This document shows positions 2,811 to 48,677 of a DNA stretch of 64,000 nucleotides, piece after piece. Numbering within the stretch: position 1 is the first letter of the stretch; each line of letters begins with the position of its first letter. Below the pieces are notes generated by a model that saw nothing but the letters and a program-made list of their open reading frames with translations, made no database searches and was not told the DNA's origin. The position numbers and the translations under genes are program-made. Origin of the DNA: a virus; the IMG/VR virus record IMGVR_UViG_3300025874_000005, positions 100,119 through 164,118 of that record, one strand, 5' to 3'.

Positions 2811-2966
2811 ATGGACACAAAAGAATTATTAGAAGGAATTAAAGAACAAGTATTATTAATTGAAGCAGAATTAGAAAAAACAAGTGCTGCCGCAAAGGGT
2901 AGATGTAGATCTGCTGCCAATAAAATTAAAAACTTATCTGCTGATTTCAAAAGAAACCATAAATAG
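2811..2966 (+). CDS. Small 51-residue protein with protease-like leader
   Basis: ATG at 2811, stop TAG at 2964-2966. The protein starts MDTKELLEGIKEQVLLIEAE, has L-I-E before Ala (a possible prohead-protease site) and ends with a basic tail rich in Lys/Arg/Ala with one cysteine (GRCRSAANKIK). Its start follows the leader TAACAAATAAAATTTATAAAA, a pattern shared with starts at 9939 and 54241. It fills the gap between two genes on the same strand, two bases before the next start. Its N-terminal resemblance to neighbouring small genes (2113, 13640) supports a real gene; function is unknown. Confidence 0.55.
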   Translation: MDTKELLEGIKEQVLLIEAELEKTSAAAKGRCRSAANKIKNLSADFKRNHK

Positions 2967-2968
2967 GA

Positions 2969-33989: not shown

Positions 33990-36900
33990 ATGGCATTAGA
34001 TAAAATAAAAAAGTCGAATAGATTACTCCAGAGTAAGAGATATACAATGGAGCAGAGTACTGATGCTCAGGAGGCATTCACAAGAACTCTCGACATTAAT
34101 GCTGGTGATGTTTATATAAGAGAAAATTTTGTTCCCTTAAATAATTTACCATATTCTGGTAGTGGACAGAACCAAGATACAATAGAATCAGGTTCAGCTT
34201 TAACAGCTGTTGATATTGTAAAGTTTCACTTCCAACATCAATTAACACCATCATCGGTTGTTAATGGTAGTAAAACAGAAGTATTTTTCTTTATATCAAA
34301 ATCAGCACATGATCCTACAATAGCTGTTACTCCTCAAATTATACAGGATGGACAACAAACAAACTTTTTATCACCAAAATATTCAGATGCTTCCTTAACA
34401 TTTAAAAATACTGAGGATAATGTACCCGCAGGAAACGGTACACCTGGATATAATGTTACTGTTAGAGTAAATGGTACTGAACAAGATTCAGCTTTTTATC
34501 AATTTGATTATAAAACAGGTGTAATACAATTCGTAGATAATTCAGTCTCACCATCAACCGGAGATACTGTCGTTTTATCAGCATACCAATATGTAGGTCC
34601 TACATTAGCAGATGGTGGTGTTGGTGGAGGTAATGCTTTTCCATTTTCAGGATCAGCACAAATAACAGGATCAGTTGGGGGTGTTCCAGGTGGATTCGCA
34701 GTAACCGGTAGTAGTACATTTGATGTAAGTGGTACCGGAGATGATTTTTCTATAATATCAGCTCCAATACAAGATAGACCTGAATTATTAACATATAACC
34801 CTTCAACAGGTCTTATAGGATATGTAAATGCAACTAGTGGTACTAGTGGATTTTCAGGTTCAAGTGGTACAGCAGGCCAATCTGGTACTTCAGGTACAAG
34901 TGGTTCATCAGGTTCAACAGGAACAAATGGTACTTCAGGAGAATCTGGTACTTCAGGAACATCAGGTGAAAGTGCTACTTCAGGTACATCAGGTACATCA
35001 GGTACTTCAGGTACATCAGGTGAAAACGGAACAAACGGTACTTCAGGTTTAAGTGCAACAAGTGGTTCTTCAGGAACAAGTGGTACTTCAGGTGAATCAG
35101 GCACAGCAGGAACAAGCGGAGAAAGTGCAACATCAGGCTCAAGTGGTACTTCAGGTACTTCAGGTGAAAGCGGCACAGTAGGTACATCAGGAGAAAGTGC
35201 AACATCAGGCTCAAGTGGTACATCAGGTACTTCAGGAGCAGATGGAACAAGAGGTACTTCAGGTTCAAGTGGTACAAGTGGTACTTCAGGTACATCAGGT
35301 ACTTCAGGAGCAGATGGGACAAGAGGTACGTCAGGAGAAAGTGCAACATCCGGCTCATCAGGTACTAGTGGTACTTCAGGTGAATCAGGCACAGCAGGAA
35401 CAAGCGGAGAAAGTGCAACATCAGGCTCAAGTGGTACTTCAGGTACTTCAGGAGCAGATGGAACACGCGGAACTTCAGGAGAAAGCGCTACTTCAGGATC
35501 AACAGGTACTTCAGGTACATCAGGTTCAAACGGAGTAGCAGGAGAAAGTGGCTTAAGTGCTACAAGTGGTACATCAGGAACCAGTGGTGCAGATGGTACA
35601 TCAGGTACTTCAGGTTTAAGTGCAACAAGTGGTTCTTCAGGAACAAGTGGTACTTCAGGAGCAGATGGAACAAGAGGTACATCAGGAGAAAGTGCAACAT
35701 CAGGCTCAAGTGGTACTTCAGGTACTTCAGGAGAATCTGGTACTGCGGGAACATCAGGTGAAAGTAGTACAAGTGGTTCTTCAGGTACTAGTGGTACCTC
35801 AGGAGCAGATGGAACATCAGGTACATCAGGTAAAAGTGCAACAAGTGGTTCTACAGGAACAAATGGAACTTCAGGTTCAAATGGTGTTGCCGGAGAAAGT
35901 GGCTTAAGTGCTACAAGTGGTACATCAGGAACCAGTGGTGCAGATGGCACCTCAGGAACTTCAGGTGTAAGTGGTACAGCAGGTTCATCAGGAACTTCAG
36001 GTACTTCAGGAGCAGATGGAACAAGAGGTACTTCAGGAGAAAGTGCAACATCCGGCTCATCAGGTACTAGTGGTACTTCAGGTGAATCAGGCACAGCAGG
36101 AACATCAGGAGAAAGTGAAACTTCAGGATCTTCAGGAACAAGCGGTACTTCAGGAGCAGATGGAACATCAGGTACATCAGGTTTAAGTGCAACAAGTGGT
36201 TCAACAGGAACAAATGGTACAAGTGGCTCAAACGGAGTAGCAGGTGAAAGTGGCTTAAGTGCAACTTCAGGTACTTCAGGAACAAGTGGAGTTGATGGTA
36301 CATCTGGAACAAACGGAAAAAGCGGAACAAGTGGTTCATCAGGAACAAGTGGTACTTCAGGAGCAGATGGAACAAACGGAACTTCAGGTTTAAGTGCAAC
36401 TTCAGGATCATCAGGTACTTCAGGTACTTCAGGTACTTCAGGAGAATCTGGTACTGCAGGAACATCAGGTGAAAGTGCTACAAGTGGTTCAGCAGGTACA
36501 TCAGGTACTTCAGGTGAAAGTGGAACAAATGGCACATCAGGAGAAAGTGCAACCTCAGGTTCAACAGGAACAAATGGTACATCAGGTTCAAATGGGGTAG
36601 CAGGAGAAAGTGGCCTAAGTGCAACTTCAGGAACCTCAGGAACTTCAGGTGTAGATGGCACCTCAGGAACTTCAGGTGTAAGTGGTACAGGAGGTTCATC
36701 AGGTACATCAGGTACTTCAGGAGCAGATGGAACAAATGGTACAAGTGGTTTAAGTTCAACTTCAGGTTCAACAGGAACAAGCGGTACTTCAGGTGAATCA
36801 GGTACTGCAGGAACATCAGGAGAAAGCGAAACTTCAGGATCTTCAGGAACAAGCGGTACCTCAGGAGCAGATGGAACATCAGGTACATCAGGTTTAAGTG

Positions 36901-39900
36901 CAACTTCAGGTTCAACAGGTACTTCAGGTACATCAGGTTCAAATGGGGTAGCAGGTGAAAGTGGCTTAAGTGCAACTTCAGGAACTTCAGGAACTTCAGG
37001 AGCAGATGGAACTTCAGGTACAAGTGGCGAAAGTGGCGAAAGTGGCTCATCAGGTACTAGTGGTACTTCAGGAGCAGATGGAACATCAGGAACAAGTGGT
37101 CTAAGTGCAACTTCAGGTTCATCAGGTACATCAGGTACTTCAGGAGCAGAGGGAACAAAAGGAACTTCAGGAAAAAGCGGAAAAAGCGGAACTAGTGGTT
37201 CAGCAGGTACTTCAGGTACTTCAGGTGAAACAGGAACAAATGGTACATCAGGTTTAAGTGCAACAAGCGGTTCAACAGGAACAAATGGTACAAGTGGCTC
37301 AAATGGAGTAGCAGGGGAAAGCGGTTTAAGCGCAACTTCAGGTACTTCAGGAACTTCAGGTGTAGATGGTACATCAGGTACAAGTGGTGTAAGCGGAACT
37401 GGAGGTTCATCAGGAACTTCAGGTACTTCAGGAGCAGATGGAACAGCAGGAACATCAGGTGAAAGTAGTACAAGTGGTTCTTCAGGTACTAGTGGTACTT
37501 CAGGTGAATCAGGTACTGCAGGAACATCAGGAGAAAGTAAAACAAGTGGTTCATCAGGTACTTCAGGTACTTCAGGTGAAACTGGAACAAATGGTACATC
37601 AGGTAAAAGTGCAACATCAGGATCAACGGGTACTAATGGTACTTCAGGTTCAAACGGAGTAGCAGGTGAAAGTGGCTTAAGTGCAACTTCAGGTACTTCA
37701 GGAACTTCAGGAGTAGATGGAACTTCAGGTACAAGTGGCATTAGTGGTACAAGTGGCTCATCAGGTACATCAGGTACATCAGGAGCAGATGGAACAAACG
37801 GAACTTCAGGTTTAAGTGCAACTTCAGGATCAGGAGGTACTTCAGGTACTTCAGGAGCAGATGGAACAAACGGAACTTCAGGAAAAAGTGCAACTTCAGG
37901 ATCATCAGGTACATCAGGTACTTCAGGTAAAACAGGAACAAACGGAACTTCAGGTAAATCAAATACTTCAGGTACATCAGGTACTTCAGGTTCCTCAGGT
38001 ACTAATGGTACAAGAGGTTTATCAGGTAAATCAAATACTTCAGGTACATCAGGTACTTCAGGTTCGACAGGTACTTCAGGTACATCAGGTGAATCAGGCA
38101 CAGCAGGAACAAGCGGAGAAAGTGCAACTTCAGGTTCGACAGGTACTTCAGGTACATCAGGTTCAAATGGAGTAGCAGGTGAAAGTGGCTTAAGTGCAAC
38201 TTCAGGAACTTCAGGAACTTCAGGTGTAGATGGCACCTCAGGAACTTCAGGTGTAAGTGCAACAAGCGGTTCATCAGGTACTTCAGGTACAAGTGGTGCT
38301 GATGGTACAGCAGGAACATCAGGTGAAAGTAATTTAAGTGGTACATCAGGTACATCTGGTACATCAGGTACATCAGGTTCAAGAGGTACTTCAGGTACTT
38401 CAGGCGAAAATGGTACATCAGGTACAAGTGGTGTAAGTGCAACAAGTGGTTCAGCAGGTACATCAGGTACTTCAGGTGAAACCGGAACAAATGGTACGTC
38501 AGGTTTAAGTGGTAAAAGTGGTACTTCAGGTTCAGCAGGTACTTCAGGTACATCAGGTAAATCAGGTAAAAACGGCACAGCAGGAACAAGTGGTAAAAGT
38601 TCAACTTCAGGATCAGCAGGTACAAATGGTACTTCAGGTAAAAATGGAACAGCAGGAACAAGTGGTAAATCAGGAACTTCAGGTTCAACAGGAACAAATG
38701 GTACATCAGGTTCAAATGGGGTAGCAGGAGAAAGTGGCCTAAGTGCAACTTCAGGAACCTCAGGAACTTCAGGTGTAGATGGTACTTCAGGTACAAGTGG
38801 TGAAAGTGGAGGAAGTGGTTCATCCGGTACTAGCGGTACTTCAGGAACAGACGGAACAAATGGAACAAAAGGTTCAAGTGGAAATAGTGCAACATCAGGT
38901 TCATCAGGTACATCAGGTACATCAGGTGAAAGTGGAACTTCAGGAACCTCAGGTTTAAGTTCAACTTCAGGAAGTTCAGGTACTTCAGGTACAAGTGGTA
39001 AATCAGGAAAAGATGGTACTGCTGGTACATCAGGTAAATCAAATACTTCAGGAAGTTCAGGTACTTCAGGTACATCAGGTACATCAGGTGAAAGTGGAAC
39101 TTCAGGAACCTCAGGTTTAAGTTCAACTTCAGGATCAAGTGGTACTTCAGGTACAAGTGGTAAAAATGGAACAGCAGGAACAAGTGGTAAATCAAATACA
39201 TCAGGAACAACAGGTACTTCAGGTACAAGTGGTTCAAACGGAGTGGCAGGAGAAAGTGGCCTAAGTGCAACTTCAGGAACCTCAGGAACTTCAGGTGTAG
39301 ATGGAACTTCAGGCACATCAGGTTTAAGTGGTACTGCAGGTTCAAGTGGTACAGCAGGTACTTCAGGTAAATCAGGAAAAGATGGCACTTCAGGTACATC
39401 AGGCAAATCAGGTACTTCAGGATCAGCAGGTACAAATGGTACTTCAGGTAAAAGTTCAACTTCAGGTACCTCAGGTTTAAGTTCAACTTCAGGAAGTTCA
39501 GGAACTTCAGGTACTTCAGGAGCAGATGGAACAGCAGGAACCTCAGGTGAAAGTAATTTAAGTGGTACATCAGGTACATCAGGTACATCAGGTACATCAG
39601 GATCAAGGGGTACTTCAGGTACTTCCGGTAAAAATGGAACAGCAGGAACCTCAGGTTTAAGTTCAACTTCAGGATCAGCAGGTACAGCAGGTACTTCCGG
39701 TAAAAGTGGAACAGCAGGTACAAGCGGTAAATCAAATACATCAGGTACATCAGGTACTTCAGGATCATCAGGTACTAATGGTACAAGAGGTTTATCAGGT
39801 CAATCAAATACCTCAGGTACATCAGGTTCTTCGGGTTCAACAGGTACAGCAGGTACTTCCGGTAAAAGTGGAGTAGCAGGTACAAGTGGTAAAAGTTCAA

Positions 39901-42900
39901 CTTCAGGAACAACAGGTACTTCGGGTACAAGTGGCTCAAACGGAGTAGCAGGTGAAAGTGGTTTAAGCGCAACTTCAGGTACTTCAGGAACGAGTGGAGT
40001 TGATGGTACATCAGGTACAAGTGGTGTAAGTGCAACAAGTGGTTCAGCAGGTACATCAGGTACTTCAGGTAAATCAGGAGCAGATGGAACAGCAGGTACT
40101 TCAGGTAAAAGTGCAACTTCAGGATCAGGAGGTACATCAGGTACAAGCGGTAAAAACGGAACAGCAGGAACCTCAGGTAAATCTAATACTTCAGGAAGTT
40201 CAGGTACAAATGGTACTTCAGGTAAAAATGGAACAGCAGGAACCTCAGGTAAATCAAATACTTCAGGAACATCAGGTACTTCGGGATCATCAGGTACTAA
40301 CGGTACAAGAGGCCTATCAGGTCAATCAAATACCTCAGGTACATCAGGTTCTTCAGGTTCAACGGGTACGGCAGGTACAAGCGGTAAATCAGGAGCAGAT
40401 GGAACAGCAGGAACTTCAGGTGTATCAAATACTTCAGGTTCTACAGGTACTTCAGGTAAGTCAGGAGCAGATGGAACCGCAGGAACCTCAGGTAAATCTA
40501 ATACTTCAGGATCAGGAGGTACTTCAGGTACTTCAGGTAAATCAGGAGCAGATGGAACAGCAGGAACTTCAGGTAAATCAAATACTTCAGGTTCTACAGG
40601 TACAAGTGGTACTTCCGGTAAAAGTGGAACAGCAGGTACAAGCGGTAAATCAAATACTTCAGGTACATCAGGTACTTCAGGATCATCAGGTACTAATGGT
40701 ACAAGAGGCCTATCAGGTCAATCAAATACCTCAGGTACATCAGGTTCTTCGGGTTCAACAGGTACAGCAGGTACAAGCGGTAAATCAGGAAAAGATGGTA
40801 CTGCGGGTACTTCAGGTGTATCAAATACTTCAGGTTCTACAGGTACTTCAGGTAAATCAGGAGCAGATGGAACAGCAGGAACATCAGGTAAAAGTTCAAC
40901 TTCAGGATCAGCAGGTACTTCAGGTAAATCAGGAGCAGATGGAACAGCAGGAACCTCAGGTAAATCAAATACATCAGGATCATCAGGTACATCAGGATCA
41001 TCAGGTATAGATGGGGGTAGTGGTGAAAGTGGCGAAAGCGCTACAAGTGGATCATCAGGTACTTCAGGTACTTCAGGTAAAAATGGTACTGCTGGAACTT
41101 CAGGTGTATCAAATACTTCAGGAAGTTCAGGTACAAATGGTACTTCAGGTAAAAATGGAACAGCAGGAACAAGTGGTAAATCAAACACTTCAGGTACATC
41201 AGGTACTTCGGGTTCCTCGGGTACTAATGGTACAAGAGGCCTATCAGGTCAATCAAATACCTCAGGTACCTCAGGTACATCAGGTTCTTCAGGTTCAACA
41301 GGTACGGCAGGTACAAGCGGTAAATCAGGAAAAGATGGAACAGCCGGAACATCAGGTAAAAGTGCAACTTCAGGATCAGGAGGTACTTCAGGTACTTCAG
41401 GTAAGTCAGGAGCAGATGGAACAGCAGGTACTTCAGGTAAAAGTGCAACTTCAGGATCAGGAGGTACATCAGGTACTTCAGGTAAAAATGGAACAGCAGG
41501 AACAAGTGGTAAATCAAACACTTCAGGAACATCCGGTACTTCAGGTTCCTCAGGTACTAACGGTACAAGAGGCCTATCAGGTCAATCAAATACCTCAGGT
41601 ACCTCAGGTACATCAGGTTCTTCAGGTTCAACGGGTACAGCAGGTACTTCAGGTAAATCAGGAGCAGATGGAACAGCAGGAACATCAGGTAAATCTAATA
41701 CTTCAGGTTCTACAGGTACTTCAGGTAAGTCAGGAGCAGATGGAACAGCAGGTACTTCAGGTGTATCAAATACTTCAGGATCAGCAGGTACTTCAGGTAA
41801 ATCAGGAGCAGATGGAACAGCAGGTACTTCAGGTGTATCAAATACTTCAGGATCAGCAGGTACTTCAGGTAAATCAGGAGCAGATGGAACAGCAGGAACC
41901 TCAGGTAAATCAAACACTTCAGGTTCTACAGGTACTTCAGGTACTTCAGGTAAATCAGGAGCAGATGGAACAGCAGGAACTTCAGGTAAATCAAATACTT
42001 CAGGTTCAACGGGTACGGCAGGTACAAGCGGTAAATCAGGAGCAGATGGAACAGCAGGAACATCAGGTAAATCTAATACTTCAGGATCAGCAGGTACTTC
42101 AGGTAAATCAGGAGCAGATGGAACAGCAGGAACCTCAGGTAAAAGTGCAACTTCAGGATCAGGAGGTACTTCAGGTACAAGCGGTAAAAACGGAACAGCA
42201 GGTACGTCAGGTACTTCAGGATCATCAGGTACAACTGGTTCAAGTGGTGTAGGTGGTGCTGGTGGTGTTTCAGGTGGATCAGGTACATCTGGTACATCAG
42301 GAAAAGATGGTACTTCAGGATCATCAGGTACATCAGGTACATCAGGTACTTCAGGTACTTCAGGTAAAAATGGTACAAGTGGTACATCAGGTATAAACGG
42401 TGCCTCAGGAGCGAGTGGAACACCTTTAGAGGTTTGGGTTGATGATAATACATCATTAGATTATGCTGCAAATATTAAGATAAATGGAGCAAATTATACA
42501 CAAGCATCACCATTTACATTAAATACAGATTTTTCATTAGGTATTACAAACCCATTCCAAATAGGTAAAAACCAACCAGACTTAACTAATACAAGTGCAA
42601 TTAATGGTACAGGATTTATTGAATATCTAATCCCAGGTGCAGATGGTTTTACTGGGGAATTTTATACTGGTGGGGGGAATGCAGGTGGAGTAACTCAATT
42701 TGAATTAGTAGCTTTAAACAGTGCTGGTAATTGGGATGAAGCAGATGCTGATTTATCATCAACAAAGAATTTATTGGGTGTTGCATATAAGGCAACCGGA
42801 GTATTGGTTGATGTTATATTAAGAGGTATGATTAAATCTAAGACTTTTAGTTTTACTGTTGGAGCACCAGTTTATGTTTCAAGAACACCTGGGGGTTTCA

Positions 42901-43013
42901 CACAATCATTAACAGGATTTGTTACTGGTGATTATGTAAGATTAGTAGGACATTCCATAGAAACTAATGTTTTATATTTCAACCCAGAACCAACATGGAT
43001 CTTAATTTCATAA
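33990..43013 (+). CDS. Giant collagen-like Gly-Thr-Ser repeat fibre
   Basis: A 3007-residue protein. Residues 1-280 form an ordered N-terminal domain (MALDKIKKSNRLLQSKRY, VVLSAYQYVGPT). Residues ~281-2809 are an almost unbroken Gly-x-y triplet array, mainly GTS with GES, GKS, GAD, GSS and GTA, without proline in the array I read. At intervals Gly is replaced in register (GES-ATS, GKS-NTS, GES-STS). The first part is Glu/Asp-rich and the later part Lys-rich. Residues ~2810-3007 form a globular C-terminal domain (LEVWVDDNTSLDYAANIKIN, GAPVYVSRTPGGFT). It should form a long trimeric triple-helix-like fibre. Three glycosyltransferase genes lie downstream. Confidence 0.85.
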   Translation: MALDKIKKSNRLLQSKRYTMEQSTDAQEAFTRTLDINAGDVYIRENFVPLNNLPYSGSGQNQDTIESGSALTAVDIVKFHFQHQLTPSSVVNGSKTEVFFFISKSAHDPTIAVTPQIIQDGQQTNFLSPKYSDASLTFKNTEDNVPAGNGTPGYNVTVRVNGTEQDSAFYQFDYKTGVIQFVDNSVSPSTGDTVVLSAYQYVGPTLADGGVGGGNAFPFSGSAQITGSVGGVPGGFAVTGSSTFDVSGTGDDFSIISAPIQDRPELLTYNPSTGLIGYVNATSGTSGFSGSSGTAGQSGTSGTSGSSGSTGTNGTSGESGTSGTSGESATSGTSGTSGTSGTSGENGTNGTSGLSATSGSSGTSGTSGESGTAGTSGESATSGSSGTSGTSGESGTVGTSGESATSGSSGTSGTSGADGTRGTSGSSGTSGTSGTSGTSGADGTRGTSGESATSGSSGTSGTSGESGTAGTSGESATSGSSGTSGTSGADGTRGTSGESATSGSTGTSGTSGSNGVAGESGLSATSGTSGTSGADGTSGTSGLSATSGSSGTSGTSGADGTRGTSGESATSGSSGTSGTSGESGTAGTSGESSTSGSSGTSGTSGADGTSGTSGKSATSGSTGTNGTSGSNGVAGESGLSATSGTSGTSGADGTSGTSGVSGTAGSSGTSGTSGADGTRGTSGESATSGSSGTSGTSGESGTAGTSGESETSGSSGTSGTSGADGTSGTSGLSATSGSTGTNGTSGSNGVAGESGLSATSGTSGTSGVDGTSGTNGKSGTSGSSGTSGTSGADGTNGTSGLSATSGSSGTSGTSGTSGESGTAGTSGESATSGSAGTSGTSGESGTNGTSGESATSGSTGTNGTSGSNGVAGESGLSATSGTSGTSGVDGTSGTSGVSGTGGSSGTSGTSGADGTNGTSGLSSTSGSTGTSGTSGESGTAGTSGESETSGSSGTSGTSGADGTSGTSGLSATSGSTGTSGTSGSNGVAGESGLSATSGTSGTSGADGTSGTSGESGESGSSGTSGTSGADGTSGTSGLSATSGSSGTSGTSGAEGTKGTSGKSGKSGTSGSAGTSGTSGETGTNGTSGLSATSGSTGTNGTSGSNGVAGESGLSATSGTSGTSGVDGTSGTSGVSGTGGSSGTSGTSGADGTAGTSGESSTSGSSGTSGTSGESGTAGTSGESKTSGSSGTSGTSGETGTNGTSGKSATSGSTGTNGTSGSNGVAGESGLSATSGTSGTSGVDGTSGTSGISGTSGSSGTSGTSGADGTNGTSGLSATSGSGGTSGTSGADGTNGTSGKSATSGSSGTSGTSGKTGTNGTSGKSNTSGTSGTSGSSGTNGTRGLSGKSNTSGTSGTSGSTGTSGTSGESGTAGTSGESATSGSTGTSGTSGSNGVAGESGLSATSGTSGTSGVDGTSGTSGVSATSGSSGTSGTSGADGTAGTSGESNLSGTSGTSGTSGTSGSRGTSGTSGENGTSGTSGVSATSGSAGTSGTSGETGTNGTSGLSGKSGTSGSAGTSGTSGKSGKNGTAGTSGKSSTSGSAGTNGTSGKNGTAGTSGKSGTSGSTGTNGTSGSNGVAGESGLSATSGTSGTSGVDGTSGTSGESGGSGSSGTSGTSGTDGTNGTKGSSGNSATSGSSGTSGTSGESGTSGTSGLSSTSGSSGTSGTSGKSGKDGTAGTSGKSNTSGSSGTSGTSGTSGESGTSGTSGLSSTSGSSGTSGTSGKNGTAGTSGKSNTSGTTGTSGTSGSNGVAGESGLSATSGTSGTSGVDGTSGTSGLSGTAGSSGTAGTSGKSGKDGTSGTSGKSGTSGSAGTNGTSGKSSTSGTSGLSSTSGSSGTSGTSGADGTAGTSGESNLSGTSGTSGTSGTSGSRGTSGTSGKNGTAGTSGLSSTSGSAGTAGTSGKSGTAGTSGKSNTSGTSGTSGSSGTNGTRGLSGQSNTSGTSGSSGSTGTAGTSGKSGVAGTSGKSSTSGTTGTSGTSGSNGVAGESGLSATSGTSGTSGVDGTSGTSGVSATSGSAGTSGTSGKSGADGTAGTSGKSATSGSGGTSGTSGKNGTAGTSGKSNTSGSSGTNGTSGKNGTAGTSGKSNTSGTSGTSGSSGTNGTRGLSGQSNTSGTSGSSGSTGTAGTSGKSGADGTAGTSGVSNTSGSTGTSGKSGADGTAGTSGKSNTSGSGGTSGTSGKSGADGTAGTSGKSNTSGSTGTSGTSGKSGTAGTSGKSNTSGTSGTSGSSGTNGTRGLSGQSNTSGTSGSSGSTGTAGTSGKSGKDGTAGTSGVSNTSGSTGTSGKSGADGTAGTSGKSSTSGSAGTSGKSGADGTAGTSGKSNTSGSSGTSGSSGIDGGSGESGESATSGSSGTSGTSGKNGTAGTSGVSNTSGSSGTNGTSGKNGTAGTSGKSNTSGTSGTSGSSGTNGTRGLSGQSNTSGTSGTSGSSGSTGTAGTSGKSGKDGTAGTSGKSATSGSGGTSGTSGKSGADGTAGTSGKSATSGSGGTSGTSGKNGTAGTSGKSNTSGTSGTSGSSGTNGTRGLSGQSNTSGTSGTSGSSGSTGTAGTSGKSGADGTAGTSGKSNTSGSTGTSGKSGADGTAGTSGVSNTSGSAGTSGKSGADGTAGTSGVSNTSGSAGTSGKSGADGTAGTSGKSNTSGSTGTSGTSGKSGADGTAGTSGKSNTSGSTGTAGTSGKSGADGTAGTSGKSNTSGSAGTSGKSGADGTAGTSGKSATSGSGGTSGTSGKNGTAGTSGTSGSSGTTGSSGVGGAGGVSGGSGTSGTSGKDGTSGSSGTSGTSGTSGTSGKNGTSGTSGINGASGASGTPLEVWVDDNTSLDYAANIKINGANYTQASPFTLNTDFSLGITNPFQIGKNQPDLTNTSAINGTGFIEYLIPGADGFTGEFYTGGGNAGGVTQFELVALNSAGNWDEADADLSSTKNLLGVAYKATGVLVDVILRGMIKSKTFSFTVGAPVYVSRTPGGFTQSLTGFVTGDYVRLVGHSIETNVLYFNPEPTWILIS
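34830..42418 (+). repeat. ~7.6 kb degenerate tandem repeat (GGT-ACT-TCA type)
   Basis: The coding triplet repeat of the giant fibre. Nine-base units such as GGTACTTCA and GGAACAAGT vary in synonymous codons. About eleven long units encode GSNGVAGESGLSATSG, and about seven in the second half encode GTRGLSG(K/Q)SNTSG. Confidence 0.9.
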
Positions 43014-43017
43014 AAAT

Positions 43018-43746
43018 ATGCCTCAAGTAAATTTAGCCCCATATACTACAAACAGCTCTAACTATGCTTTAGGTAATATTAGAAGAACGGGTGTAGGTTC
43101 CTGGACTTCTATTAGAACAGGCACACCAGTTTCAGGAAATGTGTCTCAAACAGGTAATTCTACTAAAAGTATTGGTGTTGCTTGGACTGGAGGTAGTAGA
43201 GGATCATATAGCTTATATAGAAATTATATATGGTATGATGTAACAGCCTACCAAAGCGTTTTAATAACTTCAGCAGAATTAACTTGTCCTACAACGGCAG
43301 GGGTAACTGCTTTAGCACTTCCAGTAATAGCAGTAGATAGTAGTACTGCTTTTAGTAATAATTCAAACACAACATTAAGTTTAAGTCAATTTCTTTCTAC
43401 TTCTTTTGTAGCTTATAGTAATTCTACAAATTGGGCACAAACCACAGGTTTCCAACAAATAACCCTAAATAGTTCAGCAATAGTAGCAATACAAAATGGA
43501 AATAATTTTGGAGTTGGTATTATAGACCATAATTATGATTTTCAAAATGTTCAACCCTCAGGTATTGGATTTGATGGTTTTTATTTAGGTGATATGTCAA
43601 ATGCAACACAAAGATCAAGATGGACATTAACTTTAAATTACATAGCAGGATGGTCAGCCGGAGACATGAATGGAGTGGCAAGTAGTGACATGGGGGAAGT
43701 TAATGGTGTAGCTATAGCAGACATAAGTGAAATTAATGGTATTTAA
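43018..43746 (+). CDS. Fibre-associated protein with C-terminal NGVA repeats
   Basis: A 242-residue beta-rich protein four bases after the giant-fibre stop. The body has alternating strands (SYSLYRNYIWYDVTAYQSV, SSAIVAIQNGNNFGVGII) like a jelly-roll. The last ~30 residues are short repeats: GDMNGVASSDMGEVNG and VAIADISEINGI, of the (D-x-x-x-NGV-A) type often ending phage tail or adhesin proteins. Its position suggests a tip or accessory of the collagen-like fibre. It is the last gene before the glycosyltransferase block. Confidence 0.6.
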   Translation: MPQVNLAPYTTNSSNYALGNIRRTGVGSWTSIRTGTPVSGNVSQTGNSTKSIGVAWTGGSRGSYSLYRNYIWYDVTAYQSVLITSAELTCPTTAGVTALALPVIAVDSSTAFSNNSNTTLSLSQFLSTSFVAYSNSTNWAQTTGFQQITLNSSAIVAIQNGNNFGVGIIDHNYDFQNVQPSGIGFDGFYLGDMSNATQRSRWTLTLNYIAGWSAGDMNGVASSDMGEVNGVAIADISEINGI

Positions 43747-43768
43747 CAATAGTTTGGATATGTAATTA

Positions 43769-43777
43769 ATATTTATT
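43769..43777 (+). promoter_or_regulatory. Variant ATATTTATT element
   Basis: ATATTTATTATATT, one base different from the common element, 31 bases before the glycosyltransferase ATG at 43809. Confidence 0.4.
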
Positions 43778-43808
43778 ATATTGTCAAGTAGTTTTAAAAA
43801 ATAGTTAT

Positions 43809-46520
43809 ATGAAGAAAATCTTATTTATAGCGCCTCATCTTTCAACAGGAGGACTCCCACAATATTTAACTAAAAAAATTGAACTTATTAAAGATGAGTT
43901 TGAAGTATATGTAGTAGAATGGGTAGATTGTACTGGGGGGAAATTAGTTGTAACCAAAAATAAAATATTAGAATTAGTAGATAATAATAAATTTTTTACA
44001 CTTGAAGAAGATAAAAGTGAATTATTTAATATTATAGATAGGATTACACCAGACATTATTCATTTAGAAGAAATTCCTGAGTATTTTATGGATGATGATA
44101 TAGCTCGAAAGTTATATGATGTAAATAGAAGTTATTTTTTAGTAGAAACATCACATGATTCTTCTATGGATACAGACACTAAAATATTCTCACCAGATAA
44201 GTTTATGTTTGTGTCAAACTGGCAAATAGAACAGTATAAAAACATAGATATACCTAAAATACTGGTAGAATACCCAATTGAATATATCCCCAGACCTAAT
44301 AGAGAAAATGCGTTAAAACGCTTAAATCTCGACCCATCAAAAAAACATATATTACATATAGGTTTATTTACTTCTAGAAAAAACCAAAAAGAATTTTTTG
44401 AATATGCTGAAGCATTACCTGAATATGAATTTCATAGTGTAGGAAACCAGGCAGATAATTTTAAATGGTATTGGGAACCTTTAATGGAAAATAAACCAAC
44501 TAATTTAACTTGGTGGGGTGAACGAACTGATGTAAATAATTTCTATCAATCAATGGATTTATTTTTATTTACATCTAGAGGAAGTAAAAATGATAAAGAA
44601 ACAATGCCTCTAGTAATACGTGAAGCTTTATCTTATCAAATACCACAACTATTATATAATTTAGAAGTTTATCAAAATTATTTTGAAGACTATAATACAA
44701 TTAATTATTTAGATTTTGCAGATTTTAATAAGAACGTTAAATTAATTAAAAATCAACTAAATACCCCTTCTATAATACCCCCAGATGTTGAAGAAAAAGA
44801 AGCATATGTGATTTGTACTTACCCAAATACACAAGCAGTAGTAGATACCACAATAGAATGTATTAAATCATTAAGAAAAAACAGTAATAGAAAAATAATT
44901 ATATCCGCACATTGTCCTGTTCCAAAGGAATTACAGGGTATGGTTGATTATGTTTTTTATGAAAAAAATAATTTATTAACAAAACATACATTCTACTCAG
45001 GTTATTGGATGTATCATGATCAATATGATACCCATGTAAATTTAAAAGGTGAAGATAATGATAGATATCACGGCCCAGCATGTTATACATCCTTCTATAA
45101 CCCAGCAACATTTGCTAAAGAATTAGGGATTGAAAAATTATACTATATTAACTTTGATTATATTCTTAAAGATAGTAGTTATATAGATTATATATCTAAA
45201 AAATTAAATACTCATGATACTTTCTTTGGTGAATATGAAGCACAAGAAGGTAAATGTTATTATACATATTTCTTTGCAGTCAAACCAGATGCAATTTTAA
45301 GACATTGTGATTTTATAGAAACTGAAAATCAATATAATAGTCTTATGGATAAGTATGAGGCTGAATCTAATGGTATTGAAAATTTATATTATCATATATT
45401 TAAAAATAATATAAATAACTATATTGAACCAAAAGAAAAATTTGAATCTGATGCTGAAAAGTATTTTGAATTTGAGGATTATTCAATGATTGAATATTAT
45501 ACTATACTTCCTACAGATGTAGATAATCATTTTTGTCCTTGGATAACTATTTCTAATGCTAAAGAAAGTAAGAATATCTACTATACAGTAGAAAAAAATG
45601 GTGAAGTTATCATTGATAGATTGCTAGAAGTTAGGGGAAAATTTTCATTTTGGGATTTAGTAAAATATGATTTAGATGATAACATCATAGTTACATTTGA
45701 TGTAAAAGATACTAATACTGGAGAAAGTGTAAAATATCATAAATTTAATTTAAATAAAGATTATTTTTTAAATACAATGCCTAATAATGGTATGTTTAAT
45801 TGGAAAGGAGATAGAAGTAGATACAACCCAAAAATTAAACTAATGCATTTAGTTACAGAACCAGATGTAAATGAAAAAGAAATAAGATCAGTAAAAAATA
45901 TTAAAGAATTTTGTGAATCAACAGGTATAGAATACGAACAAAGAATAAATAAAATATGGACTGACTTACCCCCAATTGATACTTGTAATAGACCTGAAGA
46001 TGTTCAAGACAAACCAGGATATTATAAACTAGCACCAGGACATTATGGGTGTTATAAAGCACACACAAATGCTATTATGTCTGAAAATAATAAAGATTAT
46101 GATTATATTTTAATCTTTGAAGGGGATGTTATTGTTGATTCCCCATTTGATGAATTAAAACAAGCTTTAAATCGTTTTAGTAATCTATCTAAATCTAATA
46201 ATCAGGACATTATAGGATTTGGCAACCCTTACCAAAATCGTAATTTAAATGGGCCTAAAATTGAAGACATATACACTAATATATCTCCATTTATACCTGC
46301 ACAATCTTATTTAATAAATAAAAATAAATTACAACTTATTCAAGATAAAATTAAAAATACAAAATGGGATGCTTTTGATATGTGGGTATGTAATGTAGCT
46401 AAATTAAAAGTAGGAACAGCAGAAAAAATTTATACTAAACATCTACCAGGATTTAGTATAATTGAGCAAGAAATAAAAACAACAGACGAAAATAGTCCTT
46501 TAATATACGCTGGAGAATGA
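43809..46520 (+). CDS. Three-module glycosyltransferase fusion
   Basis: A 903-residue protein. Residues ~1-320 are a GT-B/GT4-like module (ILFIAPHLSTGGLPQYLTKK; ILHIGLFTSRKNQKEFFEYA; FLFTSRGSKNDKETMPLVIR). Residues ~335-560 look like a second transferase-like domain (AYVICTYPNTQAVVDTTIEC; LYYINFDYILKD). Residues ~560-660 are a beta module. Residues ~670-903 resemble GT25 enzymes (DTCNRPEDV, GHYGCYKAHTNAIM, YILIFEGDVIVDSPFDEL with an acidic metal motif). It could build a short glycan alone. The stop overlaps the next start (ATGA), so it is coupled to the GT4 gene. Confidence 0.75.
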   Translation: MKKILFIAPHLSTGGLPQYLTKKIELIKDEFEVYVVEWVDCTGGKLVVTKNKILELVDNNKFFTLEEDKSELFNIIDRITPDIIHLEEIPEYFMDDDIARKLYDVNRSYFLVETSHDSSMDTDTKIFSPDKFMFVSNWQIEQYKNIDIPKILVEYPIEYIPRPNRENALKRLNLDPSKKHILHIGLFTSRKNQKEFFEYAEALPEYEFHSVGNQADNFKWYWEPLMENKPTNLTWWGERTDVNNFYQSMDLFLFTSRGSKNDKETMPLVIREALSYQIPQLLYNLEVYQNYFEDYNTINYLDFADFNKNVKLIKNQLNTPSIIPPDVEEKEAYVICTYPNTQAVVDTTIECIKSLRKNSNRKIIISAHCPVPKELQGMVDYVFYEKNNLLTKHTFYSGYWMYHDQYDTHVNLKGEDNDRYHGPACYTSFYNPATFAKELGIEKLYYINFDYILKDSSYIDYISKKLNTHDTFFGEYEAQEGKCYYTYFFAVKPDAILRHCDFIETENQYNSLMDKYEAESNGIENLYYHIFKNNINNYIEPKEKFESDAEKYFEFEDYSMIEYYTILPTDVDNHFCPWITISNAKESKNIYYTVEKNGEVIIDRLLEVRGKFSFWDLVKYDLDDNIIVTFDVKDTNTGESVKYHKFNLNKDYFLNTMPNNGMFNWKGDRSRYNPKIKLMHLVTEPDVNEKEIRSVKNIKEFCESTGIEYEQRINKIWTDLPPIDTCNRPEDVQDKPGYYKLAPGHYGCYKAHTNAIMSENNKDYDYILIFEGDVIVDSPFDELKQALNRFSNLSKSNNQDIIGFGNPYQNRNLNGPKIEDIYTNISPFIPAQSYLINKNKLQLIQDKIKNTKWDAFDMWVCNVAKLKVGTAEKIYTKHLPGFSIIEQEIKTTDENSPLIYAGE

Positions 46521-47473
46521 AAATATGCCATGTAGACCCAGCTTGTGGGTTAGATATCCCACCAAAAAATTGGGGAGCAATTGAAAAAATTATTTGGGAA
46601 TTTATAAATAATCAAAAATTACTAGGCCATGAATCTACCTACAAATTATCTTCTCATATTAATCTTGGAGAATTTGATATTGTACATTGTCATGTAGCTA
46701 ATTTAGCAATTGGTTTACAAGAAAGAAATATACCCTATATATTCCAACTTCATGACCACCATGCATTTCATTATGGTAAAGACTCACATATATTTAAAGA
46801 AAATTTAAAAGCTATAGAAGGATCACTTTTAACCTTACTACCAGGTAAATTTTTAGTTGATTATTTTAACCACCCCAAAGCACAATATTTTTCTCATGGG
46901 GTTAATGTTAATGAATTTTATCCTTCACCTAACCCAAATCCTATAAAAATAACAAACCCCAAACTGTTGATGGTTGCAGCTAATGGTTTAGCTGGTGATA
47001 AGGGTTATGATAGAAAAGGATTTAAATATGGATTAGCTTTAGCAGCAAAACATAATTTAGATATAACCATAGCAGGTCCAAACTTTAATAAAGAATTTTT
47101 TAATCAACATTTAGAAATGTTTAATTATCCAAAATTAAACTTAGTCTTTGATACACCCAACAATAAATTATTAGAATTATATCACAAACATGATATTTTT
47201 ATTCACCCTACAATGCTAGAAGCAGGCCACCCAAATTTAACTATGATTGAAGCCGCAGCTGCTGGTTTACCTATAATAGCAAATTGGGAATATGAAACAG
47301 ATTTTCATGGTGCTTGGAGATCACCACGTGATATATTTCACATGGAAGTAGGGTTAAAAGATATAATAAATAACTATGACTATTATAAAGTTAGAGCAGT
47401 AGCTACTGGAAAAGAATTAAGCTGGAAAAACAGAACAAAAGATTTATTAGAAATTTATAAAAATTTTATATAA
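46517..47473 (+). CDS. GT4-family glycosyltransferase
   Basis: A 318-residue GT-B enzyme. The N-terminal domain starts MKICHVDPACGLDIPPKNWG with the acceptor-side Gly region, has FDIVHCHVANLAIGL and YIFQLHDHHAFHYG; the C-terminal donor domain has LLMVAANGLAGDKGYDRKG, and the family signature HPTMLEAGHPNLTMIEAAAA ending in AGLPIIANWEYE (E-x7-E). It lacks membrane segments and should act in the cytoplasm on a nucleotide-sugar donor. It overlaps the upstream fusion by four bases and precedes the heptosyltransferase by one, forming a compact glycosylation operon. Confidence 0.85.
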   Translation: MKICHVDPACGLDIPPKNWGAIEKIIWEFINNQKLLGHESTYKLSSHINLGEFDIVHCHVANLAIGLQERNIPYIFQLHDHHAFHYGKDSHIFKENLKAIEGSLLTLLPGKFLVDYFNHPKAQYFSHGVNVNEFYPSPNPNPIKITNPKLLMVAANGLAGDKGYDRKGFKYGLALAAKHNLDITIAGPNFNKEFFNQHLEMFNYPKLNLVFDTPNNKLLELYHKHDIFIHPTMLEAGHPNLTMIEAAAAGLPIIANWEYETDFHGAWRSPRDIFHMEVGLKDIINNYDYYKVRAVATGKELSWKNRTKDLLEIYKNFI

Positions 47474-47474
47474 T

Positions 47475-48677
47475 ATGAAAGAAATTTTAATCCAAGAATA
47501 TAATAATTTATCTAAATTACTTATTAAACCAAAACCTCAATCTAACTTTTACCACATTAACTTTATTAATGGGGCTAAATTAGAAATTACAGGTAAAATA
47601 GATAAAAAATATAACATCCAATTTTACGACCAAAATACATTAGAATTACTTTTTGAAAGTGAAATTACAAATAATATGTGGACTAAATTTAACAAAACAT
47701 ATTATATAAATTATAATATTAAAGTAATAGATTTAGAAAATAATACAGTTGTTTTTGAACATAAATTTAATGCAAAAAACAAAAGAGTTTATATTCATTT
47801 TGCCTCAAAAGCCTTAGGGGATACTATAGCATGGTTTCCATTTGCTGAAGAGTTTAGAAAAAAGCACCAATGTGAATTAATTGTTTCTACTTTCCATAAC
47901 AGTATGTTTAAGGAAAACTATCCAAACATTAAATTTATAACTCCTGGAGAAGAACAATTTGACTTATATGCTATGTATGAAGTTGGGTGGCATTATAATG
48001 AAGATGAAAAAATAGATTATAATAAAAATATATCAGATTTTAGAAAACATGGTTTACAAAAATGTAGTGGTGAAATTTTAGGAGTTAACCAATCAGAAAT
48101 TAAACCAAAACTAACATTCAAAAATACAGGATCTACAATAGAAGGAAAATATGTCGTTATAGCACCCCATGGGTCGGCACATGCTAAGTATTGGAATTAT
48201 AAAGGAGGGTGGCAAACAATAATAGATTATTTAAATAATAAAGGTTATAAAGTAGTAATGATAACACAAGAATTATTAGGAGACAAATGGCATGATTCTA
48301 AATTAGGAGGAACTTTAACGGGGGTTATTGATAAAACTGGAGATTACCCTTTAAGTGAAAGAGCTAATGATATGTTAAATGCTAAAGCTTTTATTGGTAT
48401 TGGAAGTGGGTTAAGTTGGTTAGCTTGGGCTTTAAAAACCCCTGTAGTAATGATATCAGGATTTAGTGAAGCTTATAGTGAATTTGAAGATTGTGAAAGA
48501 ATATCATCACCTAAAAATAAATGTTCTGGATGTTTTAATAGAGTAAGATTAGATGCAGGAGATTGGGAATGGTGTCCTGATCATAAGGATACAGATAGAA
48601 TGTTTGAATGTACTAAATCAATAACACCAGATACAGTAATTGCTGCTATAAACCATCAATTAGAAAAATCTCTTTGA
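47475..48677 (+). CDS. TibC/Aah-type protein O-heptosyltransferase-like
   Basis: A 400-residue GT9-fold protein like bacterial autotransporter heptosyltransferases. It has the N-terminal beta domain (~25-105), then VYIHFASKALGDTIAWFPFA (D116, the likely catalytic base), VVIAPHGSAHAKYWNY, AFIGIGSGLSWLAWAL and TPVVMISGF. Four C-terminal cysteines, C350-x2-C353-x13-C367-x11-C379 (KCSGCFN, EWCPDH, FECTKSI), match the iron finger of that family. TibC and Aah add heptose to serines of repetitive adhesins. The natural neighbour target here is the Ser/Thr-rich 33990 fibre. Closes the glycosyltransferase operon before a late-type element. Confidence 0.82.
   Translation: MKEILIQEYNNLSKLLIKPKPQSNFYHINFINGAKLEITGKIDKKYNIQFYDQNTLELLFESEITNNMWTKFNKTYYINYNIKVIDLENNTVVFEHKFNAKNKRVYIHFASKALGDTIAWFPFAEEFRKKHQCELIVSTFHNSMFKENYPNIKFITPGEEQFDLYAMYEVGWHYNEDEKIDYNKNISDFRKHGLQKCSGEILGVNQSEIKPKLTFKNTGSTIEGKYVVIAPHGSAHAKYWNYKGGWQTIIDYLNNKGYKVVMITQELLGDKWHDSKLGGTLTGVIDKTGDYPLSERANDMLNAKAFIGIGSGLSWLAWALKTPVVMISGFSEAYSEFEDCERISSPKNKCSGCFNRVRLDAGDWEWCPDHKDTDRMFECTKSITPDTVIAAINHQLEKSL

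What the first reader, a model, noticed from the sequence alone, without database searches (positions are those of the whole stretch)
33990..48677. Candidate phage-encoded virion O-glycosylation system: giant Ser/Thr-rich fibre plus three glycosyltransferase genes
A 3007-residue Gly-Thr-Ser fibre is followed, after one small gene, by a three-module glycosyltransferase, a GT4 enzyme and a homologue of the autotransporter O-heptosyltransferases TibC/Aah, the last two tightly coupled. TibC-type enzymes are known to glycosylate serines of repetitive adhesins. Here the obvious substrate is the fibre next door, with hundreds of Ser/Thr. The three enzymes could prime and extend a glycan. This would differ from DNA glycosylation (T4) and from host LPS modification.
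Basis: partly seen in the sequence, partly recalled or inferred. Interest (0 to 1): 0.92.

Follow-up and report, generated by a model that had tools for sequence, protein, structure and literature searches.

The report
Phage cassette to glycosylate collagen-like fibre
A large aquatic phage, with many unrelated phages, carries a protein-glycosylating enzyme of a family known from bacterial adhesins next to a giant Gly-Thr-Ser collagen-like fibre, which suggests that these viruses put sugars on their own fibres; nobody has yet tested this at the bench.

Summary
A 3007-aa fibre (33990-43013), one small gene, then three coupled glycosyltransferase genes (43809-48677) precede the tail sheath. The fibre is collagen-like: about 847 Gly-X-Y triplets in one register, mostly Gly-Thr-Ser, with no proline. 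The third enzyme is a clear Aah/TibC-type protein O-heptosyltransferase: 336 bits against a cut-off of 200, with the catalytic Asp, sugar-binding Lys/Trp and iron-finger Cys kept. The first enzyme carries a tandem GT-A module whose best PDB fold matches are collagen glycosyltransferases (COLGALT1, LH3). The enzyme-fibre link holds in tests. Of 50 viral contigs chosen only for Gly-Thr-Ser repeats, 19 carry the TibC-like gene, against 1 of 50 proline-collagen contigs, and that one also encodes a Gly-Thr-Ser fibre. In six bacterial genomes a TibC-like gene lies 22-117 nt from a gene for a secreted Gly-Thr-Ser-repeat protein. Best explanation: a phage-encoded module that glycosylates fibre serines, then extends the glycan. 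Exceptions: some Gly-Thr-Ser fibres have no TibC in their contig, and one huge phage has a distant TibC without collagen. The glycan, the donor sugar and the effect on infection are untested.

The parts
33990..34802 (+). Fibre gene, N-terminal non-repetitive domain (res 1-271), presumed attachment to the virion
   Evidence: attachment inferred from position among tail genes
34803..42461 (+). Fibre gene, Gly-X-Y collagen-like region (res 272-2824), mainly Gly-Thr-Ser, no proline, 24-residue super-repeat; the proposed glycan acceptor
   Evidence: Pfam Collagen 1.6e-260; register and composition; super-repeat
42462..43013 (+). Fibre gene, C-terminal non-repetitive domain (res 2825-3007)
   Evidence: related C-termini in relatives
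43018..43746 (+). Small gene of unknown function, probably structural; present in only part of the relatives, so not an essential part
   Evidence: no Pfam, PHROG or NCBIfam match; conservation in relatives
43809..44783 (+). GT enzyme 1, module 1 (res 1-325): GT-B fold, GT4-type
   Evidence: Pfam PF00534 2.5e-10; model and fold match to GT4 enzymes
44787..45758 (+). GT enzyme 1, module 2 (res 327-650): GT-A-like domain plus beta-sandwich
   Evidence: models; with module 3 it matches COLGALT1/LH3 folds
45831..46487 (+). GT enzyme 1, module 3 (res 675-893): GT25-like GT-A domain with invariant E-x-D; optional, absent in several relatives
   Evidence: PF01755 2.2e-4; alignment A6; module presence; fold
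46517..47473 (+). GT enzyme 2: GT4-family glycosyltransferase
   Evidence: PF00534 4.9e-8; conserved in relatives
47475..48677 (+). GT enzyme 3: Aah/TibC-type protein O-heptosyltransferase homologue (proposed priming enzyme)
   Evidence: TIGR04414 336 bits, cut-off 200; TibC structure 4rap 2.3e-63; conserved D116, K238, R296, W315 and C350/353/367/379
51002..53596 (+). Tail sheath gene downstream, used as a neutral anchor (context, not part of the module)
   Evidence: PHROG 23 tail sheath 3.5e-64

Best explanation
The cassette is a phage-encoded protein O-glycosylation module for the phage's own giant collagen-like fibre. The TibC-like enzyme, soluble in the infected cell, uses an ADP-sugar (probably ADP-heptose or a related sugar) to modify serines along the Gly-Thr-Ser tract before or during virion assembly. 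The two other enzymes (GT4, and the GT4 + tandem GT-A protein that looks like a collagen glycosyltransferase) extend the first sugar or decorate other side chains. The result would be a long, proline-free fibre coated with sugars, which may stiffen or solubilise it, protect it from proteases, or mediate attachment to sugar-binding surfaces. Shown here: enzyme families, conserved catalytic residues, gene coupling, and a specific repeated association with Gly-Thr-Ser proteins in phages and bacteria. Inferred: that the fibre is the acceptor, that serine is the site, the donor sugar, the order of the enzymes, and the benefit to the phage.
For: TibC identity over the full length: TIGR04414 equivalog 2.6e-100, PDB TibC 2.3e-63; catalytic D110, sugar-binding K230/R286/W305 and all four iron-finger cysteines of TibC (roles in PMC4358343) conserved in the phage clade. 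TibC was shown to modify Ser, not Thr, in repetitive proteins (PMC4358343); Ser holds position Y in 606 of 839 triplets. Gene order fibre-GT-GT-TibC-sheath is conserved in contigs whose TibC-like proteins are 57-100% identical. In a sheath-anchored sample, 13 of 16 sheath clusters have the cassette; of the 3 without it, the immuto phage has no such fibre and one clade has only a low-Ser/Thr (22%) collagen. Reverse test: 19/50 contigs picked for GTS repeats have TibC (E <= 6.7e-85) vs 1/50 proline-collagen contigs; 15/20 vs 1/12 at >= 60 kb, and the single positive control contig also encodes a 2642-aa GTS fibre. Most of the 19 lack a detectable relative of this phage's capsid protein; 7 of 19 have opposite orientation. 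Bacterial pairs: TibC-like gene 22-117 nt from a secreted or lipoprotein-like (GTS)n gene in six genomes; in four of the five of these genomes where the exact (GT[S/T])3 DNA pattern was found, that gene is the only site. Collagen-glycosyltransferase fold: the top 17 PDB matches of modules 2-3 are COLGALT1 or LH3 entries, with an unnamed glycosyltransferase (9u7h, 9u7i) ranked among them (best 1.7e-13). An ADP-heptose adenylyltransferase-like gene lies elsewhere in the phage (2.3e-29, below curated cut-off).
Against: No glycan has been seen; all evidence is genomic. GTS fibres without TibC in the same contig exist: L126/G001 (34-kb fragment, 3579-aa fibre), and among contigs >= 60 kb G018, G041, G044, G052, plus G016 with a weak collagen; G041 and G044 have other GT or sugar genes next to a fibre. 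TibC without collagen: LR756504 (35% identity). The stereoselectivity residue P300 of TibC is Gly here, so the donor may not be the one TibC uses. About 10% of triplets lack Gly and Pro is absent, so a stable collagen triple helix is not assured. Association tests share phylogeny and are not fully independent; contigs are fragments.
Confidence: 0.77

Rival explanations
1. The three enzymes modify the host's surface polysaccharide (LPS O-chain), for example to block superinfection, and lie near the fibre because both sit in the host-interaction region of the genome. This is how glycosyltransferases in the corresponding region of T4-like pelagimyophages were interpreted.
For: PMC7029224 reports glycosyltransferases in the host-recognition cluster of T4-like marine phages and proposes LPS modification. 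GT4 and GT25 families include many LPS enzymes; a beta-1,4-galactosyltransferase also matches by fold (8xlz, 2.2e-6).
Against: The third enzyme belongs to a protein O-heptosyltransferase equivalog, far above its cut-off and far better than to LPS heptosyltransferases (336 vs 41 bits). The association is with Gly-Thr-Ser fibres specifically, not with collagen fibres in general. Bacterial two-gene units pair the enzyme with a secreted Gly-Thr-Ser protein and no cassette GT beside it.
Confidence: 0.12
2. The enzymes glycosylate virion proteins, but the main acceptor is another structural protein (the 242-aa protein, the 846-aa or 650-aa neighbours, or the sheath) rather than the Gly-Thr-Ser fibre.
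For: Neighbouring structural proteins are also Ser/Thr-rich; mycobacteriophage capsid and tail tube are known to be glycosylated (Freeman et al. 2023, as cited in PMC12619734).
Against: The 242-aa and 650-aa genes are not always present in cassette-bearing relatives. Only Gly-Thr-Ser proteins are shared between phage and bacterial TibC contexts.
Confidence: 0.06
3. The enzymes glycosylate the phage DNA or a small molecule, as in T4.
For: Glycosyltransferases of T4-like phages commonly act on modified bases (general knowledge).
Against: No match to DNA glucosyltransferase families; location in the structural block; protein O-glycosyltransferase family membership.
Confidence: 0.02
4. The association is only inherited synteny of one phage clade; the genes are neighbours with unrelated functions.
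For: Within the immuto-like clade the order is inherited as a block, and related sequences inflate the counts.
Against: The pairing recurs with shuffled orientation and fused or permuted domains in phages without a detectable relative of this capsid protein and in Methylococcaceae genomes; two of the three cassette-less clusters of the clade also lack a Gly-Thr-Ser fibre.
Confidence: 0.03

Closest known systems
Aah/TibC bacterial autotransporter heptosyltransferases (BAHT; TIGR04414; TibC structures 4rap, 4rb4)
   Same: Full-length homology above curated cut-off; catalytic Asp, sugar-binding Lys/Arg/Trp and four-Cys iron finger; gene beside a long repetitive Ser-rich protein.
   Different: Phage-encoded; neighbour is a collagen-like fibre, not an autotransporter; accompanied by or fused to further glycosyltransferases; Pro300 position is Gly; a well-supported branch separates nearly all GTS-associated proteins from a bacterial group that includes Acetobacteraceae with a Ser/Thr-rich 3068-aa neighbour.
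Collagen hydroxylysine glycosyltransferases (COLGALT1/GLT25D1, LH3, mimivirus R655/R699)
   Same: Tandem GT-A domains with a GT25-like module, beside a collagen-like protein; top fold matches in the PDB. Two tandem Rossmann domains are also reported for mimivirus R699 (PMC11838735).
   Different: About 9% identity and no sequence-level match; extra GT-B module; beta-sandwich after the first GT-A domain; acceptor here is rich in Ser/Thr; a lysyl hydroxylase was not searched for.
Virion glycosylation of mycobacteriophages (Che8 and others; Freeman et al. 2023)
   Same: Phage-encoded glycosyltransferases thought to act on virion proteins.
   Different: Targets there are capsid and tail tube C-termini (as summarised in PMC12619734 and PMC11256854; the original was not held); no TibC family or collagen fibre is mentioned in the passages read.
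Glycosyltransferases of pelagimyophage host-recognition clusters (PMC7029224)
   Same: T4-like marine phages; glycosyltransferases next to tail fibre genes; triple collagen repeats noted among structural proteins.
   Different: Read there as host LPS modification; TibC is not mentioned.

Membership tests
Aah/TibC (BAHT) protein O-heptosyltransferases | Match to the curated equivalog model TIGR04414 above cut-off | tested here: met
   336 bits against 200, residues 29-393
Aah/TibC (BAHT) protein O-heptosyltransferases | Catalytic Asp110 and sugar-binding Lys230, Arg286, Trp305 | tested here: met
   D116, K238, R296, W315; all invariant in A3; roles from PMC4358343; R296 is not conserved in distant homologues
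Aah/TibC (BAHT) protein O-heptosyltransferases | Four-Cys iron finger | tested here: met
   C350, C353, C367, C379 invariant in A1, aligned to TibC C339/342/358/370
Aah/TibC (BAHT) protein O-heptosyltransferases | Stereoselectivity residue (Pro300 in TibC, Ser294 in Aah) | tested here: inconclusive
   Gly310 at this position; effect on donor choice unknown
Aah/TibC (BAHT) protein O-heptosyltransferases | Substrate is an AIDA-type autotransporter encoded nearby | tested here: not met
   No autotransporter among the neighbouring genes scanned; the neighbour is a collagen-like fibre. It is therefore described as a homologue that works like the family, with another acceptor
Aah/TibC (BAHT) protein O-heptosyltransferases | Dodecamer and use of ADP-heptose | not testable with these tools
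   Needs biochemistry
GT25 / collagen galactosyltransferases | Pfam PF01755 above gathering score | tested here: not met
   21.6 bits against 24
GT25 / collagen galactosyltransferases | Tandem GT-A fold like COLGALT1/LH3 | tested here: met
   Best PDB match 9evj_A E 1.7e-13; global TM-score low (0.26-0.28) because domain placement differs or is uncertain
GT25 / collagen galactosyltransferases | Transfer to hydroxylysine of collagen | not testable with these tools
   Needs assay
Collagen-like proteins | Long Gly-X-Y register (PF01391) | tested here: met
   1.6e-260, 26 stretches; single register over residues 272-2824
Collagen-like proteins | Gly at every third position, with proline-stabilised triple helix | tested here: not met
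   Gly in 754 of 839 triplets and no proline; whether it forms a triple helix is not testable here

The most novel reading that the evidence does not exclude
Aquatic phages, and some bacteria, evolved a prokaryotic counterpart of collagen glycosylation: a TibC-type enzyme primes serines of a proline-free Gly-Thr-Ser helix and, in the phages, a COLGALT-like tandem GT-A enzyme extends it, with the glycan replacing proline as the stabiliser of the fibre.
Probability: 0.3. Interest if true: 0.88.

Novelty: new variant of a known kind. Interest (0 to 1): 0.76.

Why it matters
It would identify a widespread protein glycosylation system dedicated to phage fibres, with a simple acceptor sequence (Gly-Thr-Ser repeats) and a known enzyme family, and would recast many glycosyltransferases of large aquatic phages that are now read as LPS or DNA modifiers. 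It gives a concrete, cheap test (enzyme plus short repeat peptide), a bacterial two-gene minimal system, and a possible explanation of how proline-free collagen-like fibres are stabilised.

Tried and rejected
Single-sequence and profile searches of the PDB did not place modules 2-3 of enzyme 1 (the 3p9z match at 0.0013 is taken as chance); folding them did. PHROGs gave no useful name for enzymes 1 and 3. Apparent exceptions L068 (proline collagens beside TibC) and G063 (proline-collagen control with TibC) were rejected as exceptions after reading more of each contig: both also encode a giant Gly-Thr-Ser fibre. A link between TibC and phage-encoded ADP-heptose synthesis was tested: rfaE domain II-like genes in 7/22 TibC-bearing vs 1/18 other records, p = 0.054, suggestive only. 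The sigma-70 promoter scan gave no more sites than shuffles. Text searches for a paper linking heptosyltransferases with collagen-like phage proteins found none in the held library, which misses most subscription journals. In the tree the 'GTS' label was also given to some short fragments whose fibre lies outside the contig, so its label-change statistics are not used as evidence.
Full report
WHERE IT IS. The window is the last 64 kb of a 164-kb viral record (G000:C1:100119-164118). Its capsid protein and sheath are closest to Flavobacterium phage immuto among isolated phages (60% and 53% identity), so it is a T4-like phage, probably of a Flavobacteriia host (inference). The fibre and the enzymes sit in the structural block, upstream of the tail sheath at 51002.

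OBSERVATION. All genes are present at the stated coordinates. The fibre matches Pfam Collagen at 1.6e-260. Its repeat region keeps one register over residues 272-2824. In the stretch 284-2802, Gly opens 754 of 839 triplets, Thr holds X in 492, Ser holds Y in 606, and there is no proline; 724 Ser and 522 Thr lie in 2519 residues. There is an 8-triplet super-repeat in which the Gly is replaced by Ala, Asn or Ser at one place. GTS is written with 23 different nine-base codings, so the tract is maintained at protein level.

THE ENZYMES. Enzyme 3 (47475-48677) passes the curated Aah/TibC equivalog (336 bits, cut-off 200) and aligns with TibC of known structure over residues 21-396 (2.3e-63). The TibC catalytic Asp110, the sugar-binding Lys230, Arg286 and Trp305, and the four iron-finger cysteines (roles from PMC4358343) correspond to D116, K238, R296, W315 and C350/353/367/379 and are invariant in the clade. 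Thr226 is Ser here, and Pro300, which sets stereoselectivity, is Gly. Enzyme 2 is a GT4 enzyme. Enzyme 1 has a GT-B GT4 module, a GT-A-like module, a beta-sandwich and a GT25-like GT-A module. Modules 2-3, folded alone (pLDDT 87.8), match human COLGALT1 best of all PDB chains (1.7e-13), followed by LH3, then mimivirus R655. The global TM-score is low (0.26-0.28) and identity about 9%, so this is a fold and domain-order resemblance, not a membership claim; a beta-1,4-galactosyltransferase also matches, more weakly. The GT25 module is missing in several relatives, and in huge phage LR756501 the module order is permuted.

IS THE LINK TO THE FIBRE REAL? Four tests. (1) Forward: 80 viral loci with the TibC-like gene mostly show GT-GT-TibC-sheath, with a Ser/Thr-rich Gly-X-Y ORF upstream in most of the contigs that reach that far. 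(2) Neutral anchor: loci fetched by the sheath alone, plus immuto, fall into 16 clusters; 13 have the cassette. Of the 3 without, immuto has no such fibre, one clade has only a low-Ser/Thr (22%) collagen, and one (L126, 34-kb contig) has a Gly-Thr-Ser fibre without TibC. (3) Reverse with control: among 50 contigs chosen only for a Gly-Thr-Ser-coding DNA pattern, 19 carry a TibC homologue (E <= 6.7e-85); among 50 chosen for a Gly-Pro-Gln-coding pattern, 1 does (Fisher 5.8e-6; 15/20 vs 1/12 at >= 60 kb, p = 6e-4). That one control contig also encodes a 2642-aa Gly-Thr-Ser fibre. In the Gly-Thr-Ser set, the Gly-X-Y reading was checked first; 4 of the 50 controls were kept although their Gly-X-Y tract was below the length threshold. 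Only 4 of the 19 contigs hold a close full-length relative of this phage's capsid protein and one more a distant one, and fibre and enzyme are on opposite strands in 7 of 19. (4) Outside phages: of 30 bacterial- or archaeal-bin loci with a TibC homologue, six in Methylococcaceae, Polaromonas and Arenicellales have, 22-117 nt away, a gene for a protein with a signal- or lipoprotein-like N-terminus and a (Gly-Thr-Ser/Thr)n tract. In four of the five of these genomes where the exact (GT[S/T])3 DNA pattern was found, it is the only place in the genome with that pattern. The signal-peptide reading is by eye.

EXCEPTIONS. Gly-Thr-Ser fibres without TibC in the record: L126/G001 (fragment) and, at >= 60 kb, G016 (weak collagen), G018, G041, G044, G052. 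G041 has a GT2-radical SAM protein and a sugar-transfer ATP-grasp-like protein next to a fibre, and G044 has GT2, GT4 and a UDP-GlcNAc 2-epimerase next to one, so other glycosyltransferases may substitute there. The ORFs beside the fibres of G018 and G052 were listed but not scanned for families. TibC without collagen: LR756504 (35% identity). L071 is a 29-kb fragment with a mixed collagen only.

MECHANISM. Most likely the TibC-like enzyme primes serines of the Gly-Thr-Ser tract in the cytoplasm during late infection; TibC itself was shown to modify Ser and not Thr (PMC4358343). The GT4 and tandem GT-A enzymes then extend or add sugars. Shown: families, residues, coupling, specific association. 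Inferred: acceptor, site, donor, order, benefit. The phage also encodes a heptose-1-phosphate adenylyltransferase-like protein at G000:68063-68467 (2.3e-29 but 102 bits against a cut-off of 181.5); such genes occur in 7/22 TibC-bearing and 1/18 other records (p = 0.054), a hint that the donor may be ADP-heptose.

KNOWN OR NEW. Phage virion glycosylation is known in mycobacteriophages (capsid and tail tube; Freeman et al. 2023 as cited in PMC12619734). Phage proteins named 'Glycosyltransferase Aah/TibC' exist as database annotation (A0A6J5SVC1). Glycosyltransferases in the host-recognition region of T4-like marine phages were interpreted as LPS modifiers (PMC7029224). I found no paper in the held library that links TibC-type enzymes to collagen-like fibres. 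I therefore call it a new variant of a known kind: BAHT-type protein O-glycosylation, applied to phage collagen-like fibres and combined with a collagen-glycosyltransferase-like enzyme.

Noticed in passing
L461:8966-11122, L462:9944-11930, L463:8959-11137, L464:8877-11116, L460:10001-11441, L467:3596-5178: Two-gene units in bacterial genomes: TibC-like gene next to a gene for a secreted or lipoprotein-like protein with a (Gly-Thr-Ser/Thr)n tract, without the other cassette glycosyltransferases; possibly a minimal cellular version of the same system.
   Followed up: partly
L002:2-3052 (Microcystis phage Mel-JY01, PP395634.1): A 1016-aa Gly-Thr-Ser fibre ORF is not annotated in the record; reverse-strand ORFs, probably shadows of the repeat, are annotated in its place, close to a fused GT-TibC gene named 'methyltransferase FkbM'.
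   Followed up: partly
G000:C1:68063-68467 (L444:8063-8467), outside the window: 134-aa protein most like the ADP-heptose adenylyltransferase domain of RfaE/HldE (2.3e-29, below curated cut-off).
   Followed up: partly
L473:9794-13085, L478:1053-3978: In Lentisphaeria MAGs a TibC-like gene overlaps a gene for a GEKGE-type collagen-like protein with few Ser/Thr, suggesting that TibC-like enzymes may meet other collagen-like proteins too.
   Followed up: no
L003:15404-21191 (LR756501, 735-kb phage): Huge phage with the same enzymes in permuted domain order (GT4-GT25-second GT-A) and GT4 fused to TibC, and several Gly-X-Y open frames of about 2400-3500 aa elsewhere in the genome.
   Followed up: partly
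L458, L459, L465, L485: Contigs binned as Flavobacteriales, Winogradskyella, Pacearchaeota and Nitrosotalea MAGs carry this enzyme (L458, L459 with the whole cassette and fibre); probably phage contigs in bacterial or archaeal bins. The first two hint at Flavobacteriia hosts.
   Followed up: no
L011:9503-11197, L026:7212-8930: In two relatives the TibC-like protein carries an N-terminal extension; in L011 it matches a methyltransferase domain (PF13489, 0.0013), which might cap or modify the glycan.
   Followed up: no
window 34508-39406 minus strand: A 1632-aa ORF made mostly of the antisense reading of the repeat (P-E-V-P rich); a shadow, not a gene, but likely to trap automatic annotation.
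   Followed up: yes
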